A stretch of 64,000 nt of DNA from Buttiauxella agrestis (GTDB lineage: Bacteria; Pseudomonadota; Gammaproteobacteria; Enterobacterales; Enterobacteriaceae), in contig NZ_UIGI01000001.1 in assembly GCF_900446255.1 (NCBI RefSeq), forward strand, positions 2,382,763 through 2,446,762. Direction: 5' to 3'. This document shows positions 3,694-46,518 of this stretch, one piece after another. The notes under the pieces were generated by a model that was given only the letters and a program-made list of their open reading frames with translations, was not told where the DNA came from and made no database searches. Each line of letters opens with the position of its first letter. The stretch's first letter is position 1. A program made the translations under genes and the position numbers.

Positions 3694-5972
3694 GCACTCT
3701 CACAAGGCTTCAGGAGCCGCAATTTAGCCCCCATACGCTGAATAAATTTGCCACTTTAATGACGGCGGGTAACGGCTATCTTGGCCTACGCGCCTGTCAT
3801 GAAGAAGCGTATACCGATCAGACTCGCGGCATGTATCTGGCGGGCTTTTACCATCGCAGCTCGCCACTTGAAACGACGGAACTGGTGAACTTGCCAGACA
3901 TCCTGCAGATGCGCATCGAACTGGATGGTGAAATCTTCACGCTGTTGGCAGGCCAAGTCATGGAATACCAGCGCGAGCTGGATTTTGCCACCGGAGAGCT
4001 GCGCCGCAACGTGCTGTGGCTGGCCCCAAACGGCAAGCGTTATCGAATCGAATGCCAGCGGTTTTTATCTGCCGCGCAGCACTCGCTGGTTTGTTCACGC
4101 ATCGCCATTACACCGCTGGATAGCGAAGCTACAGTCACAATCAGCACCGGAATCGATGCCACGCAAACCAACTCTGGCCGCCAACACCTGGATGAAACCA
4201 GCGTTCGCGTCTTCGAGCAGCGTTACTTGCAAGGCTGCTATCGCACGCTCGATGGCAGCAACGAAGTGATTATCAGCAGTTATTGCGCGCTACCATCTGA
4301 AAGTCACAGCAGTTTTTATGCGAAAAACCGCCGTCTGACACAGCACTGTAGCGGCCTGGTCGCCCAGGGTGAGGCTTTCAGCCTGGTGAAAACTAGCTGG
4401 ATTGCCAGCTCGCTTGATAAAAACTATCGCGCTGAAACCTGCGCGGAACACGCACTGCAAAACCTGATGCAATGCGTTGAATGCGGGTACGAACAGCTTC
4501 TTGCGCAGTCAGCTCAGGTCTGGGATGGCTACTGGCAGCGTAGTCGCGTGAAGCTCGAGAGCATGAATGAAGAAGATCAAATCGCGCTGGATTTCGCGTT
4601 GTACCATCTTTTCGCCATGACGCCCGTTCACAACGAGCGCTGTAGCATTGCCGCCAAAGGGCTGACGGGCGAGGGCTATAAAGGCCATGTTTTCTGGGAT
4701 ACCGAAGTTTTCCTGCTGCCATTTCATTTAATGACTCAGCCACATATTGCCCGCCAGTTACTGAGTTACCGTTGGCATAACTTGCGTGGTGGGCAGAAAA
4801 AAGCACGGGAAAACGGCTGGCGAGGCGCGCTATTCCCGTGGGAGAGCGCGTGGACGGGTGAAGAGGAAACACCTGAGTTTGCTGCAATCAATATCCGCAC
4901 GGGTTTGCGCCAGAAGGTTGCTTCGGCGCTGGCGGAACACCATCTTGTCGCTGATATTGCCTGGGCTGTTGATGCGTATTATCAGGTAACTGCCGACGAA
5001 GTTTTCATGCGCGAACGCGGAGTGACGCTGCTTCTGGAAACCGCACGATTCTGGATAAGCCGGGCGGTGAACGTGAATGGAAGGCTGGAACTGCACGATG
5101 TTATCGGCCCGGATGAATACACCGAGCATGTTGATAACAACGCGTACACCAATTATCTGGCATTCCACAACGTCGAGCGGGCAAGGCACTATGTGCAGCA
5201 ATTCGGCATTCAGGACGCTGCATTTGCCAGTGCCGCGGATGATTTTCTGGTACGCCTTTGGCTACCACCTGCCAATGAGCAGAACCTGATTGAGCAAGAC
5301 GACACCTTCTTCAGTAAACCGACTATCGATCTCACGCGTTACAAACAGCAGCAGGGAACGCAGGCGATTTTGCTCGATTATTCACGCGCTGAAGTTAACG
5401 AGATGCAAATCCTCAAACAGGCTGATGTGGTGATGCTCACTTACATGTTGCCGTGGCGTTTTACGGCTGAACAACTGGAGGCGAATCTTGGGTACTACGA
5501 ACCACGGACGATTCACGACTCGTCACTGAGCAAAGCTATTCATGGTGTGATTGCCGCACGTTGTCACCGAGTCAATCAAGCTTACGAATTTTGGCAGCAG
5601 GCAGGCCTTATTGACCTCGGCGACGATCCGCACAGCTGTGACGACGGCATTCATGCGGCCGCAACGGGCGCAATCTGGCTGGGCGCGGTGCAAGGGTTTG
5701 TTGGGTTAACCGTCGAACAGGGCGAACTTCACCTAAACCCACGAATGCCCGCGCAGTGGCAATCTGTCGCGCTGCCGTTTTTCTGGCAAGGAACACAAAT
5801 TCATCTGATGTTAACTCACCAGCACGTCACAATTTCTGGCGCGCAAAATACACCGCTAACCCTTTGGTTAGGTGGAAAGCACGTCTCATTTGTTGGTACA
5901 CAAACGTTTTTACTGGCTGAGTTTTTTGCACCTGTGAATGGGAGCGGTACCACGAAAGGGGCGGAACAATGA
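3690..5972 (+). CDS. ycjT: Kojibiose phosphorylase YcjT (GH65)
   Basis: Glycoside hydrolase family 65 phosphorylase, 760 residues (E. coli YcjT about 755). E. coli YcjT was shown to phosphorolyse kojibiose to glucose and beta-glucose-1-phosphate. The catalytic segment reads [16 protein letters not shown], with the likely general acid Glu near residue 476, and the phosphate/substrate segment [14 protein letters not shown] lies near residue 385. It is coupled to ycjS upstream and ycjU downstream by four-base ATGA overlaps, so phosphorylase and mutase are made together and their reactions are consecutive. Confidence 0.94.
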
Positions 5973-42070: not shown

Positions 42071-42189
42071 GCAGGTGAATGCAACGTCAAGCGATGGGCG
42101 TTGCGCTCCATATTGTCTTACTTCCTTTTTTAGAATTACTGCATAGCACAATTGATTCGTACGAGCCGACTATTAGTCGGCTTTTTTTT
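42071..42189 (+). ncRNA. fnrS: FnrS small regulatory RNA
   Basis: Hfq-dependent sRNA induced by FNR under anaerobiosis, repressing genes for aerobic functions such as sodB. The 5' end GCAGGTGAATGCAACGTCAA and the central CTCCATATTGTCTTACTTCC seed region are as I remember E. coli FnrS, and the gene lies after zntB, its known neighbourhood in E. coli. An FNR site sits at -42. The 3' end is an intrinsic terminator (stem AGCCGACT / AGTCGGCT at 42164-42171 and 42175-42182, then eight T residues). The total length is about 118 bases. Confidence 0.94.
42164..42189 (+). terminator. fnrS terminator
   Basis: A perfect 8-base-pair stem with a 3-base loop (ATT) is followed by an uninterrupted T tract. 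It forms the 3' end of FnrS and would provide the Hfq-binding poly-U tail. Confidence 0.93.
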
Positions 42190-42432: not shown

Positions 42433-43368
42433 CTATTTTATTTCGAGGATATCGAGGCGTTGCGCAGGGGATTCACTGTCTTCGTCTTCTGGCTGCCAGC
42501 CCGCAGGCTGCATCGGCAATTCTTCGCGGTCGAACGCTAAATCACCACCATCGACAACTTCCGCACCGTGTTTCAGGCCTTTGAAATCAAACAGCGTGGT
42601 ATCGCACATATGCGAAGGCACCACATTTTGCATCGCGCTGAACATGGTTTCGATACGGCCAGGATAACGTTTATCCCAGTCGCGCAGCATCTCGCCAATC
42701 ACCTGGCGCTGGAGGTTTGGCTGTGAACCACACAGGTTGCACGGAATAATCGGGTATTCACGCGCGATGGCGAAACGCTCAATATCTTTCTCGCGGCAGT
42801 AGGCCAGCGGGCGAATCACAATGTGCTTGCCGTCATCACTCATCAGTTTTGGTGGCATGCCTTTCATTTTGCCGCCGTAGAACATATTCAGGAACATCGT
42901 CTGAAGAATGTCATCGCGATGGTGGCCAAGGGCAATTTTCGTTGCCCCTAACTCGGTTGCGGTGCGGTAGAGAATGCCACGGCGTAAACGAGAGCAAAGC
43001 GAGCAGGTGGTTTTCCCTTCTGGGATCTTGTCTTTTACGATGCCGTAAGTGTTTTCTTCGACAATTTTGTACTCCACACCAATGCTTTCCAGGTACGCAG
43101 GCAGAATGTGCTCAGGGAAACCGGGTTGCTTCTGGTCGAGGTTAACCGCCACCAGGCTGAAATTGATTGGCGCGCTCTGCTGCAAATTACGCAGAATTTC
43201 CAGCATGGTGTAGCTGTCTTTGCCACCAGACAGGCAAACCATAATGCGATCGCCTTCTACAATCATGTTGTAATCAGCGATAGCTTCGCCCACGTTACGA
43301 CGCAGACGTTTCTGTAATTTGTTCAGGTTGTATTGTTCTTTCTTAGTAACTTCTTGTTTATCTTGCAT
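42433..43368 (-). CDS. ttcA: tRNA 2-thiocytidine(32) biosynthesis protein TtcA
   Basis: ATP-dependent tRNA thiolase, 311 residues as in E. coli, installing s2C at position 32. The PP-loop SGGKDS is at residues 47-52 and the paired cysteines of the 4Fe-4S cluster lie in CSLCSR (near 122) and the later CNLC (near 213). In E. coli K-12 the Rac prophage attaches in this gene; here ttcA is intact and no prophage genes adjoin it. Confidence 0.96.
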
Positions 43369-43588
43369 TTAGTTGACGCTCTAACTCGAAAAGGGGCACC
43401 GCAGGGGCATAGCCATGCTACATGGCGTGTATGGTACGGATTGCGGCGACGAAAGTCAGCACGAAATGAAGTAAAAAGCGTTTCTTAATGGCGTGGTTTT
43501 AATGAGATTAGAATAAGTTTGCCCTATTAAAACCTTATTTATTGCATGGATAATTTCACTTATGTATTATGCGCCGCCGGCCAATCTT

Positions 43589-43637: not shown

Positions 43638-43711
43638 CCGCCACTAGCTCATCGGGAAGAGCGGCAACCTCTGTGTTGTAGTACGGGGTTCGAGGCTCCG
43701 GTGGCGGACCA
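43638..43711 (+). tRNA. tRNA-like gene with a six-base anticodon loop (isotype undetermined)
   Basis: A 74-base sequence that folds as a full cloverleaf. The acceptor stem is a perfect 7 bp (CCGCCAC at 43638-43644 with GTGGCGG at 43701-43707) followed by an encoded ACCA. The D-stem is GCTC/GAGC around ATCGGGAA, and the T-stem CGGGG/CTCCG (one G-U pair) around TTCGAGG. The anticodon stem GCAAC/GTTGT (outer G-U pair) closes a loop of only six bases, CTCTGT, instead of seven. If the first five bases take normal positions 32-36, the anticodon is CTG (Gln), but this is uncertain. T-loop position 60 is G rather than a pyrimidine. It may be a degenerate tRNA, a tRNA with a noncanonical role, or an attachment-site relic. 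Confidence 0.6.
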
Positions 43712-43766: not shown

Positions 43767-44135
43767 TTATGCATCTGGTTTTTCATAGCGCGGCAACTGC
43801 GTAATCTCATAGGTACTTGTGCTCAGCACGACGCAGCGATCTGGCTCAGGGTTGCCGGAATAAAACATGAAATAGGTCTGTTTTCCCGGGAAGAACACCA
43901 GGTCATCTCCATTTTGAAAACGTGTGACGCGGAAAGGGACATCATTCTGGGTTTTGTTCTGTCTGACTCCGGAGGCAACCTGAAAGTGTTCGTCCCATTT
44001 CATTGTCGTGAGGCTATAAGCAAAACGCGAAATCACCATATTTTCACGCATTGAACATGAAAGTCGGGTTGCTGTGGCGGCAAATACAGAAGAATGAACG
44101 AGGCCTAAAAGGCTTAATAAAAGAACAAATTTCAT
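43767..44135 (-). CDS. Hypothetical secreted protein
   Basis: Protein of 122 residues with a clear Sec signal peptide (MKFVLLLSLLGLVHSSVFA, cleavage near ATA) and a mature part of about 100 residues containing two cysteines (RLSCSM and DRCVVL), which could form a disulfide. The start at 44135 follows AAGGTG with normal spacing; five further upstream codons in frame are ignored. I do not recognise a family. It lies in the variable zone between ttcA and dbpA, on the strand opposite to the tRNA-like gene. Confidence 0.72.
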   Translation of the reverse strand: MKFVLLLSLLGLVHSSVFAATATRLSCSMRENMVISRFAYSLTTMKWDEHFQVASGVRQNKTQNDVPFRVTRFQNGDDLVFFPGKQTYFMFYSGNPEPDRCVVLSTSTYEITQLPRYEKPDA

Positions 44136-44323
44136 GAGACACCTTGTCATCTAATGTAGGTAACAGAAGGGTAACATGAATCGCCATAGAATTTAAATTT
44201 GCGCAATTCATATTCTTTAGATGATTTATCTAATGAAACTGAAGGTTCGCGGAACTCAAAACCGGGGAGGGATATATTCGCAGGTGGGTATTAATTCGGG
44301 GAGGGGTTAACCTGATTGATAAT

Positions 44324-44522: not shown

Positions 44523-44813
44523 TTACTTAGAGCAATAAACGCGTGCATCACGTGGGGTATAAATACCAAACGTGATAAAGCCGAGGAAACCGTCAGCAAA
44601 CGTCTGCTGAACTTCTGTGCGTACCACTTTATCTGCACCGCCGCATACCGCTGCCGCATCAACAGTTTTGGTTTGACCAATACCGCTTACAAAGAAGTGA
44701 TGTGTCGTGGTTTGCTGTGGTTTCTCAGCAATATCTTTATTAATCGTGAAGGTTTGCTGCGCACAGCCAGATAAAACCAGAGAAGCAACAGCCGCTATCA
44801 TTAACTTTTTCAT
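44523..44813 (-). CDS. bor: Bor-family lipoprotein
   Basis: Outer-membrane lipoprotein of 96 residues very like phage lambda Bor and plasmid Iss. The lipobox LVLSGC gives lipidation at Cys17, and conserved segments THHFFVSGIGQTKTVDAA and GFITFGIYTPRDARVYC follow. Bor/Iss proteins are associated with serum resistance. AAAGGGATTGTT precedes the ATG at 44813; the longer upstream frame is ignored. Bor genes are often of phage origin, which suits its place in the variable zone next to ttcA. Confidence 0.87.
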   Translation of the reverse strand: MKKLMIAAVASLVLSGCAQQTFTINKDIAEKPQQTTTHHFFVSGIGQTKTVDAAAVCGGADKVVRTEVQQTFADGFLGFITFGIYTPRDARVYCSK

Positions 44814-45144
44814 AACAATCCCTTTGTTTATTTGTAGTAACCGCGCGCAGAATCGCATTGTAATTATTAATAAGAAATCCGACCAGTTGTTGGTATAAGA
44901 ATTATCTTGCCATTGTTTTGGATTTGTTTATATCGCATCAAATTAGACGATTTGGATTAACCTTTATCGATCATTTGAAAGATTTAATACTGAAGTCATG
45001 ATTATCAGGGTAAATCAGGTCTTATCACAGCGTGTGACTTGAAATGGCAGCCCTAATTTGCTGGAAACTGCCGCGTTGCAGCGACGAATCTGCTAATATG
45101 CGCGCCAGACGCTGTCTGACAGCCCATTAATTGAGAGTATAACT
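44814..45144. other. Intergenic region between bor and dbpA
   Basis: A 331-base gap between divergent genes. It is AT-rich near bor and contains a -10-like TAATAT at 45094-45099 that may belong to the dbpA promoter. I see no ORF of useful length or stable RNA in it. Confidence 0.4.
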
Positions 45145-46518
45145 GTGACATCTTTTTCTACCCTAAACGTTCTGCCAGCAGAACAACTCGCCAACCTCAC
45201 CGAACTTGGTTATCACACCATGACGCCTGTTCAGGCGGCTGCATTACCCGCGATTCTGGCTGGGAAAGATGTCCGCGCACAGGCGAAAACCGGCAGTGGC
45301 AAAACCGCTGCATTTGGCCTGGGCTTACTGCAACACATTGACGCAAATCAGTTTATTACTCAGTCGCTGGTGTTGTGCCCGACTCGCGAACTGGCTGACC
45401 AGGTAGCAAAAGAATTACGCCGCCTGGCACGCTACATGCCGAATATTAAAGTGCTCACGCTTTGTGGCGGGCAGCCGTTTGGTGCCCAGCGCGATTCGCT
45501 GCAACATGCTCCGCATGTGATTGTCGCGACACCTGGCCGTTTGCTGGATCACCTGAAAAAAGAGACCGTCAAGCTCGATGCCCTGCAAACGCTGGTGCTG
45601 GACGAAGCAGACCGCATGCTGGATATGGGATTTGCTGACGCCATTGACGAAGTGATTAGCCATGCGCCGCAAGATCGCCAGACCCTGCTTTTCTCTGCTA
45701 CCTGGCCGACGGCTATTGCATCCATTAGCTCCCGCGTGCAGCGTTCGCCAGAAACCATCGAAATTGATTCCGTAGATGAATTGCCTTCTGTAGAGCAGCA
45801 ATTCTATGAAATCTCCCGCAGTGGCAAAATTAGCCTGTTGCAGAAACTTCTTAGCAAGCATCAACCTGCGTCTTGCGTCGTCTTCTGTAACACCAAGAAA
45901 GATTGCCAGGCCGTTTGTGATGCGCTAACCGAAAGCAACCAAAGCGTGCTGGCGCTGCATGGCGACATGGAACAGCGCGATCGCGATCAAACGCTGGTGC
46001 GTTTTGCCAACGGCAGTAGCCGCGTGCTGGTCGCAACGGATGTTGCAGCACGTGGTCTGGACATCAAAGCACTGGAAATGGTGATTAACTACGAACTTTC
46101 CTGGGACCCGGAAGTTCACGTTCACCGTATTGGTCGTACCGCTCGCGCCGGTGAAAGTGGCCTGGCAATTAGCCTGTGCGCACCTGAAGAAGCCCAGCGT
46201 GCCAGCGTGTTAGCAGAGATGTTGAACTTGTCTTTGAGCTGGCAGCCCGCGCCTACAGCCGGAAGCATCAAACCGCTGGAAGCGACTATGGCGACGTTGT
46301 GCATCGACGGCGGTAAAAAAGCGAAAATGCGTCCAGGTGATATTCTCGGTGCGTTGACCGGTGATTTGGGACTGGATGGCGCAGATATCGGCAAAATTGA
46401 TGTGCACCCGATGCACGTTTATGTCGCGATCCGAGAATCTGTAGCGCGTCATGCGTGGAAGCAATTGCAGAGTGGTAAAATTAAAGGCAAATCCGTCAAA
46501 GTGCGTTTGCTGAAGTAA
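45145..46518 (+). CDS. dbpA: ATP-dependent RNA helicase DbpA
   Basis: DEAD-box helicase, 457 residues as in E. coli, acting in 50S ribosome assembly. Motifs in order: Walker A AKTGSGKT near residue 48, PTRELA, the DEAD box LVLDEADRMLD near 151, SAT in LLFSATWP, VATDVAARGLD and HRIGRTARAG. The C-terminal domain (about 385-457) is the RNA-recognition fold that binds 23S rRNA helix 92. Translation starts at a GTG codon, as I recall for E. coli dbpA. It converges on gapC. Confidence 0.96.
   Translation: MTSFSTLNVLPAEQLANLTELGYHTMTPVQAAALPAILAGKDVRAQAKTGSGKTAAFGLGLLQHIDANQFITQSLVLCPTRELADQVAKELRRLARYMPNIKVLTLCGGQPFGAQRDSLQHAPHVIVATPGRLLDHLKKETVKLDALQTLVLDEADRMLDMGFADAIDEVISHAPQDRQTLLFSATWPTAIASISSRVQRSPETIEIDSVDELPSVEQQFYEISRSGKISLLQKLLSKHQPASCVVFCNTKKDCQAVCDALTESNQSVLALHGDMEQRDRDQTLVRFANGSSRVLVATDVAARGLDIKALEMVINYELSWDPEVHVHRIGRTARAGESGLAISLCAPEEAQRASVLAEMLNLSLSWQPAPTAGSIKPLEATMATLCIDGGKKAKMRPGDILGALTGDLGLDGADIGKIDVHPMHVYVAIRESVARHAWKQLQSGKIKGKSVKVRLLK

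What the first reader, a model, noticed from the sequence alone, without database searches (positions are those of the whole stretch)
43638..43711. Complete tRNA cloverleaf with a six-base anticodon loop beside ttcA
All four stems, the D- and T-loop invariants and an encoded ACCA are present, and the acceptor stem pairs perfectly, yet the anticodon loop CTCTGT has only six bases, so the isotype cannot be read with confidence. A decayed tRNA should also lose stem pairing; here the stems are intact, which suggests selection on the structure. It could be a tRNA with a special role, a mobile-element cargo tRNA, or an integration target.
Basis: seen in the sequence. Interest (0 to 1): 0.75.

Follow-up and report, generated by a model that had tools for sequence, protein, structure and literature searches.

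The report
Non-decoding tRNA-like RNA from phages
The odd tRNA gene belongs to a widespread, unnamed family of phage-derived tRNA look-alikes whose body is strictly preserved while the part that reads the genetic code is shrunken and scrambled, so it probably does a job other than making protein.

Summary
In detail: an intact cloverleaf with CCA and a six-base anticodon loop. It is not a sequencing error or a plain relic. The window is most likely Buttiauxella; eight of 12 genomes of that genus carry the element beside ttcA. Outside the anticodon arm all 58 bases are identical in nine sequences, whereas 9 of 68 fourfold sites of neighbouring ttcA are invariant. The loop varies: CTCTGT, CTCAGT, CACAGT, CGCAGT, AGCAGT, CATAG. 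A promoter-like block upstream is largely conserved. The same body fills one slot of lambdoid prophage tRNA arrays, which holds Arg(TCG), Lys(TTT) or this element, and stands alone in several enterobacterial genera. In E. coli 5145 of 5426 genomes have a copy, at the yahM locus in K-12; the RNA is conserved across Escherichia, the YahM frame is not. Loops run from 4 to about 11 bases with no common triplet, so ordinary decoding is very unlikely. I read it as a prophage-born, host-kept, non-decoding tRNA-like RNA acting through its body, most likely as a decoy for a tRNA-attacking enzyme. The mechanism is inferred. Ten paper searches showed no description of it.

The parts
43638..43711 (+). tRNA-like element: complete cloverleaf with encoded ACCA and no readable anticodon
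   Evidence: family alignment A1
43664..43679 (+). anticodon arm GCAAC-CTCTGT-GTTGT; loop at 43669-43674
   Evidence: the only part that differs among nine Buttiauxella sequences
43542..43578 (+). promoter-like block TTGCAT-17 bp-TATTAT followed by GCGCCGCC
   Evidence: exact block found once in the window, 0 in 100 shuffles; largely conserved in nine sequences while surrounding DNA diverges. The generic scan did not pick it, and in my own scan it was among the best two sites in 5 of 9 sequences, the window not among them
42433..43368 (-). ttcA-like gene (PP-loop family), the conserved neighbour used as neutral yardstick
   Evidence: Pfam PF01171 E 9.5e-13; the name ttcA is from the finding and recalled
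43767..44150 (-). 127-aa protein of unknown family downstream of the element
   Evidence: no Pfam or PHROG match at E <= 0.01; relatives beside the element in three other Buttiauxella (76, 86 and 100% identity)
44523..44858 (-). Bor-like lipoprotein gene, lambdoid prophage remnant in the same interval
   Evidence: Pfam PF06291 E 8.6e-29; phrog_260 Bor-like E 2.4e-43
45145..46518 (+). dbpA, right-hand edge of the interval that holds the element
   Evidence: Pfam PF03880 DbpA E 1.5e-22

Best explanation
The element is a member of a family of prophage-derived, non-decoding tRNA-like RNAs. Shown by sequence: it shares a body and an array slot with decoding-type phage tRNAs; its anticodon arm has no conserved triplet or length across the family; the acceptor, D and T arms and CCA are held by strong purifying selection in two genera; a promoter-like block is conserved; and copies stand at single loci in several host genera. 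Inferred: it is transcribed and matured like a tRNA, is not a translation tRNA, and acts in trans through its tRNA-shaped body. The mechanism I commit to is a decoy: it occupies a tRNA-recognising enzyme, most plausibly an anticodon nuclease of a phage, defence system or bacteriocin, while its short, changing anticodon loop is a poor substrate. My estimate is about 0.85 for a conserved non-decoding functional RNA of phage origin and about 0.3 for the decoy step; the confidence figure is for the whole statement.
For: Nine Buttiauxella sequences, found by BLAST and not by a pattern: 58 of 58 bases outside the anticodon arm identical, against 9 of 68 fourfold sites of ttcA; if sites are independent, about 1e-51. 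Among the 74-base members, loop differences to the window are 1 to 3 of 6 where ttcA fourfold divergence is 0.07 to 0.53. Six Escherichia genomes: 80 of 81 positions invariant, against 26 of 97 fourfold sites of yahN. Of 54 distinct non-canonical sequences, 38 have loops of 4-6 bases and 9 have 7; 2 of those 9 have U33 (my count). Paired cells: 98.7% of 1060, above all 500 shuffles. Discriminator base varies (A 25, T 24, C 4, G 1 of 54), which speaks against one amino-acid identity. Phage origin: 28 of 31 non-canonical viral copies lie within 15 nt of an ordinary tRNA, 21 of 31 on both sides, mostly 1-3 nt away; the slot after the CAT tRNA holds Arg(TCG) (49 before Arg TCT), Lys(TTT) (26 before Thr TGT) or this element (12 before Thr, 7 before Gly, 2 before Arg TCT). 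Precedents: phage tRNAs with changed anticodon arms resist anticodon nucleases (PMC10264068, abstract; [quoted passage not shown]
Against: No expression, processing or binding data for the RNA were seen. No nuclease or other partner has been linked to the element. In Escherichia, and partly in other genera, the loop is conserved too, which suits a loop-dependent role as well. Inside E. coli the contrast with flanking DNA is weak: copies at >=95% identity are 5121 of 5150 for the element, 5109 of 5122 for a downstream control and 2912 of 5106 for an upstream one. Family-wide sameness of the two ends is partly built in, because the fetching pattern demanded them. The covariation measures that count both-sided changes and pair types are less clear (8, 20 and 40 of 500 shuffles reach them). 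A genome-reduced K-12 derivative appears to lack yahM (PMC10652928, passage), so the RNA seems dispensable in culture. Folding energy is not exceptional. One group (L144, L149, L169, L187) has a 7-base loop ATTTTAT that could be read as anticodon UUU. The tree of bodies is too short to show a single origin; one clade is weakly rejected, p 0.034. The paper PMC10264068 has none of the terms deletion, insertion, shorter or decoy in its text.
Confidence: 0.4

Rival explanations
1. It is a regulatory small RNA that uses a tRNA shell for stability and processing; the message lies in the anticodon arm, leader or trailer, as suggested for the Bacillus cereus pseudo-tRNA tRNAOther.
For: Conserved promoter-like block; loop conserved inside Escherichia; precedent PMC3399842 (abstract only).
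Against: In Buttiauxella the leader and trailer diverge freely and the loop changes at about the synonymous rate, so no conserved guide sequence there; in phage arrays ordinary tRNAs lie on both sides in 21 of 31 viral copies, mostly 1-3 nt away.
Confidence: 0.25
2. It carries an amino acid for a reaction outside the ribosome (cell wall, lipid or peptide synthesis), so only the body and CCA end matter.
For: Body and CCA conserved, anticodon free.
Against: Discriminator base varies A/T/C/G; the third acceptor pair is G-C in all 53 aligned rows (partly by construction of the search pattern), not the G3-U70 of tRNA-Ala that I recall as an anticodon-independent identity. Neighbours of 28 loci, read by eye, show no consistent synthetase or transferase: one ThrRS-like frame (L161) and scattered acetyltransferase- or glycosyltransferase-like proteins.
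Confidence: 0.1
3. It still decodes, as a frameshifting or doublet-reading tRNA that helps phage or host genes.
For: Full tRNA body and CCA; lies in phage arrays with ordinary tRNAs.
Against: Loop triplets share no sequence across copies or among close Buttiauxella species, loop length runs from 4 to about 11, U33 mostly missing.
Confidence: 0.05
4. It is a decaying prophage tRNA, or its sameness reflects recent spread or gene conversion from phages, not selection.
For: Prophage remnant setting; a truly decayed copy exists (L014: broken D stem and acceptor pair, read by eye); 4 of 12 Buttiauxella genomes lack a close copy.
Against: Nine sequences at fourfold divergence up to about 0.55 keep the body letter for letter, with a largely conserved promoter-like block at the same locus; yahN-linked copies in six Escherichia genomes likewise. 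Gene conversion is not fully excluded.
Confidence: 0.06
5. It is an attachment site for integrating elements.
For: Proteins that look like P4-type integrases (by eye) lie near the element-tRNA-Gly pair in L147, L176 and L163.
Against: Exactly one copy of the element's 3' end in each of 8 carrying genomes; the tRNA-Gly 3' end is also single in G007 and G008, which hold two of those integrase-like genes.
Confidence: 0.03

Closest known systems
tRNAOther pseudo-tRNA of Bacillus cereus (PMC3399842, abstract seen)
   Same: A tRNA-shaped gene not used in translation, tied to a mobile island, with effects on the cell
   Different: A single predicted pseudo-tRNA that is part of a larger RNA; here a large family with a strictly kept body and a variable anticodon arm. 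No sequence relation was tested
tRNA-like domain of YrlA Y RNA (PMC7790460, passages seen)
   Same: tRNA-like fold without decoding; proposed as a competitive inhibitor of an anticodon nuclease
   Different: YrlA is an operon-encoded Y RNA; here the RNA is tRNA-sized with a short anticodon hairpin; no Y RNA family among the Rfam matches at E <= 1
Phage tRNAs that evade anticodon nucleases, e.g. T5 tRNA-Lys against PARIS (PMC11455837 passages; PMC10264068 abstract)
   Same: Phage-encoded tRNAs with altered anticodon arms
   Different: Those replace the cleaved host tRNA in translation; 38 of 54 distinct sequences here have loops of only 4-6 bases and the family has no common triplet
Lambdoid phage tRNA arrays near antiterminator Q (CAT tRNA-Arg-Arg, CAT tRNA-Lys-Thr)
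   Same: Same slot, same body CCGCCAY...RTGGCGG
   Different: The slot holds decoding-type loops there, the non-decoding arm here

Membership tests
Elongator tRNA | Cloverleaf stems, D- and T-loop invariants, CCA | tested here: met
Elongator tRNA | 7-base anticodon loop with U33 and a readable triplet | tested here: not met
   (2 of 54 distinct non-canonical sequences have a 7-base loop with U33)
Elongator tRNA | Recognised by the general tRNA model (Rfam RF00005) | tested here: not met
   not reported for the window; 1 of 9 copies found
Elongator tRNA | Aminoacylation and use on the ribosome | not testable with these tools
   needs RNA experiments
tRNA pseudogene / relic | Substitutions at the neutral rate, stems breaking | tested here: not met
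   contrast with the decayed copy L014
Phage tRNA-array member | Lies among ordinary tRNA genes of lambdoid phages | tested here: met
   28 of 31 viral non-canonical copies within 15 nt of another tRNA; annotated records. The window copy itself now stands alone
Integrase attachment site in a tRNA gene | Duplicated 3' end of the gene at the far side of an inserted element | tested here: not met
   8 of 12 Buttiauxella genomes with one copy each, 4 with none; window genome not held
YrlA / Y RNA | Y RNA stem for Ro binding next to the tRNA-like domain | tested here: not met
   the element is tRNA-sized with a short hairpin as anticodon arm; no such Rfam match. Definition recalled
tmRNA | tRNA-like ends with tag-peptide frame | tested here: not met
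   ARAGORN reports no tmRNA
Decoy or inhibitor of an anticodon nuclease | Binds the nuclease and protects host or phage tRNAs | not testable with these tools
   inference from anatomy and precedents only

The most novel reading that the evidence does not exclude
Lambdoid phages and their hosts share an unrecognised class of RNA countermeasure: tRNA-shaped RNAs that have given up decoding and serve as decoys against tRNA-cleaving toxins and defences, their anticodon arms driven to change in an arms race, and host lineages keep them after the prophage decays, including in most E. coli at the yahM locus.
Probability: 0.25. Interest if true: 0.92.

Novelty: new variant of a known kind. Interest (0 to 1): 0.75.

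Why it matters
An RNA that the general tRNA model mostly misses (1 of 9 copies) has a copy in 5145 of 5426 complete E. coli genomes, in K-12 beside and partly under a protein name whose reading frame is not conserved across Escherichia. It shows tRNAs recruited, apparently through phages, to a job that needs the tRNA body but not the anticodon. If the decoy reading holds, phage tRNA arrays would supply not only codons and cleavage-resistant tRNAs but also non-decoding shields. The question can be put to test at once in K-12.

Tried and rejected
Sequencing error: rejected, because the nearest relative B. agrestis and other species also have six-base loops. Link to TtcA (a C32-modifying enzyme, recalled): rejected as general, because in other genera the element lies elsewhere. 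Regulation of thrS in Pluralibacter: element 216 nt upstream of a ThrRS-like frame in L161 only; taken as coincidence. Fold energy as evidence: too weak. Generic promoter scan: its one site is not the conserved block and is near chance. Conservation inside E. coli: too weak a contrast with the flanks to lean on. Tree of the 58-base bodies: too few columns; single origin neither shown nor firmly excluded. In one search my sorting of decoding-type and non-canonical copies was incomplete; the counts used come from the corrected sorting. In one search the loop parser mis-split L079 and L192 and failed on L184; L079 I read by eye as 7 bases, the other two are left as unparsed. Alignment A1 leaves out L184 and L192, 2 of 54 distinct non-canonical sequences, and adds the window. 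Papers: ten searches; none of the listings or passages that I saw describes this family. The library holds open-licence papers only.

Full report
What is there. The window holds one tRNA-like gene at 43638-43711 (+), found by ARAGORN as 'tRNA-???' without a triplet anticodon. Read from the sequence, its stems pair, the acceptor stem is perfect, the T stem has one G-U pair, CCA is encoded, and the anticodon loop is CTCTGT. RNA folding gives the cloverleaf, though the energy is only z = -1.37 against shuffles. The general Rfam tRNA model does not report it at E <= 1.

Where the window comes from. The window's own assembly is not held. So the window is most likely Buttiauxella. Eight of 12 genomes of the genus carry a copy at 94-98% identity; two more hold only a diverged relative, two none at E <= 0.001. 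All eight lie beside ttcA.

Selection. In nine sequences (window plus eight, found by BLAST) the 26 bases before and the 32 bases after the anticodon arm are identical. Of 68 fourfold-degenerate ttcA codon sites comparable in all nine, 9 are invariant; pairwise fourfold divergence runs from 0.07 (window to B. agrestis) to about 0.55. Treating sites as independent, 58 invariant sites would have a chance near 1e-51 under that rate. The anticodon loop behaves differently: 1 to 3 of 6 positions differ from the window among the 74-base members, and three species have a 73-base form with a 5-base loop. The stem below it still pairs in each, through G-U where needed (by eye).

Transcription signals. 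Upstream, TTGCAT, 17 bases, TATTAT and GCGCCGCC (43542-43578) stand as a largely conserved island while leader and flanks diverge. The exact block occurs once in the window and in none of 100 shuffles. A GC-rich stretch after the -10 box is typical of stable-RNA promoters (recalled). Against this, the generic scan missed it, and in my own scan it ranked among the best two sites in 5 of 9 sequences. Comparable 17-spaced boxes lie before copies in Klebsiella, Pluralibacter and other loci; several score no better than other sites nearby. In six of the nine loci a tRNA-Gly(TCC) follows after 2 nt; it is absent in the window, B. agrestis and B. warmboldiae.

Family. A pattern of the conserved ends found 54 stretches in one scan of the 84,980-species genome collection, by record title in Enterobacteriaceae, Serratia and Edwardsiella, plus two contigs filed as Chryseobacterium; 50 of the 54 are non-canonical. 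In a second collection it matched 28 of 295 genomes of the family, 15 of 154 genera, with 0 matches of the reversed control; by eye 26 of the 28 hold a non-canonical copy. In IMG/VR it matched at least 120 stretches, where the scan stopped. BLAST found 7 phage records, one of them annotated 'tRNA-Pseudo-TTG'. Because the pattern demands both ends, their sameness across the family is partly built in; the anticodon arm was left open. Across 194 fetched copies (85 distinct; some loci were fetched twice), 31 distinct sequences (95 copies) have decoding-type loops (Arg TCG, Arg TCT, Arg CCT, Lys TTT with C33) and 54 distinct (99 copies) do not. By my count, the 54 have loops of 4 (4 sequences), 5 (8), 6 (26), 7 (9), 8 (2), 10 (2) and 11 (1) bases; two were not parsed. 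Some can be read with a longer stem and a smaller loop. Two of the nine 7-base loops have U33. In 53 aligned sequences 98.7% of 1060 base-pair cells are standard pairs, above all 500 shuffles; the measures that count both-sided changes and pair types are reached by 8 to 40 of 500 shuffles, since most acceptor pairs never vary.

Phage context. Of 31 non-canonical viral copies, 28 have an ordinary tRNA within 15 nt and 21 have one on both sides. The slot after a CAT tRNA holds Arg(TCG) before Arg(TCT) in 49 copies, Lys(TTT, C33) before Thr(TGT) in 26, and the non-canonical element before Thr in 12, Gly(TCC) in 7 and Arg(TCT) in 2 (RefSeq names the CAT tRNA Ile). Annotated records place arrays after an antitermination (Q) gene and before a holin gene. 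RefSeq leaves a gap where the element lies. In the window the ttcA-dbpA interval also holds a Bor-like gene, so the locus reads as a decayed lambdoid prophage from which the element was kept.

Host-kept copies. Of 50 non-canonical genome loci, 29 have no other tRNA within 15 nt. They lie at different places in different genera: yahL-yahN in Escherichia (annotated in K-12), between an scsB-like and a LysR-like gene in the Klebsiella oxytoca group, near rcnR-like genes in Pseudocitrobacter, and others (names by eye, not by a family search). In E. coli 5145 of 5426 genomes have a copy covering at least 80% of the 81-base K-12 query. The best copy is at >=99% in 4735 of 5150 records and at >=95% in 5121; for a downstream 81-base control the figures are 1525 and 5109 of 5122, for an upstream one 1291 and 2912 of 5106. 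The >=99% band turns on single-base alleles, so inside the species the contrast is weak. Between lineages it is strong: across six Escherichia genomes 80 of 81 positions are invariant, while 26 of 97 fourfold sites of adjacent yahN are; five of the six were fetched by the pattern. Here the loop is conserved too. The annotated YahM frame starts inside the acceptor stem. It is open for 81 codons in the K-12 sequence, 1 of 7 tested; the other six stop after 11 to 31 codons, although many E. coli records listed do annotate it. Across Escherichia the conserved feature is therefore the RNA. Region-level expression has been reported: yahM values of 2.5 to 9.1 in Shiga-toxin E. coli on epithelial cells (PMC7649339, passages). 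A genome-reduced K-12 derivative lists yahM in what appears to be a deletion (PMC10652928, one passage).

How it may work. Decoding is very unlikely: no common triplet, no fixed length, mostly no U33. Charging by one synthetase is unlikely given the variable discriminator base, though this rests on recalled identity rules. What selection keeps is the tRNA body. A body-recognising partner is therefore the simplest reading. Phage tRNAs are held to change anticodon loops to escape anticodon nucleases (PMC10264068, abstract; [quoted passage not shown] I therefore commit to a decoy for a tRNA-attacking enzyme, at about 0.3, inside a firmer claim of a conserved non-decoding RNA, about 0.85. Against it stand the conserved loop inside Escherichia, the lack of any linked nuclease, and the lack of expression data.

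Place among known things. It works like, but is not shown to be related to, the Bacillus cereus pseudo-tRNA tRNAOther (PMC3399842, abstract). It fails the tests for an elongator tRNA, a relic and an attachment site. I call it a new variant of a known kind, tRNA-like non-coding RNA, with the possibility of more.

Noticed in passing
L196:1501-1816 (E. coli K-12 yahL-yahN): The annotated yahM frame begins in the acceptor stem of the tRNA-like RNA and is open in 1 of 7 Escherichia sequences compared, though often annotated in E. coli records; the protein is doubtful.
   Followed up: yes
window 44523-44858: Lambda Bor homologue between ttcA and dbpA, a sign of a decayed prophage.
   Followed up: yes
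window 43767-44150: 127-aa protein with a signal-like start and no family match, present beside the element in three other Buttiauxella.
   Followed up: partly
window 42071-42185: Match to the Rfam family frnS (RF01796, 116.9 bits) on the + strand.
   Followed up: no
L022, L024 and similar viral loci: Phage 'tRNA-Lys(TTT)' of the same body carries C33 in place of U33 and discriminator T (26 copies); most decoding-type members have T73 (25 of 31 distinct), odd for Arg or Lys tRNAs (recalled). They too may not be ordinary translation tRNAs.
   Followed up: partly
L014:1505-1580: A copy with broken D stem and acceptor pair in a second array of Buttiauxella G006: what real decay looks like (by eye).
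   Followed up: partly
L154, L187: Contigs titled Chryseobacterium sp. 18061 carry members of this enterobacterial family; the assembly is probably mixed.
   Followed up: no
L016:4450-4642, L021:3540-3721 and 4673-4852: Matches to the sRNA family STnc100 lie downstream of these phage tRNA arrays.
   Followed up: no
G184:C1:1336876-1336959: A copy whose anticodon arm seems lengthened by a near-repeat of GTTGT-rich sequence: arm length may change by slippage.
   Followed up: no
L147, L176, L163: Integrase-like proteins (by eye) shortly downstream of the element-tRNA-Gly pair; no duplicate of the tRNA-Gly 3' end was found in G007 or G008, so its use as integration site is not shown.
   Followed up: partly
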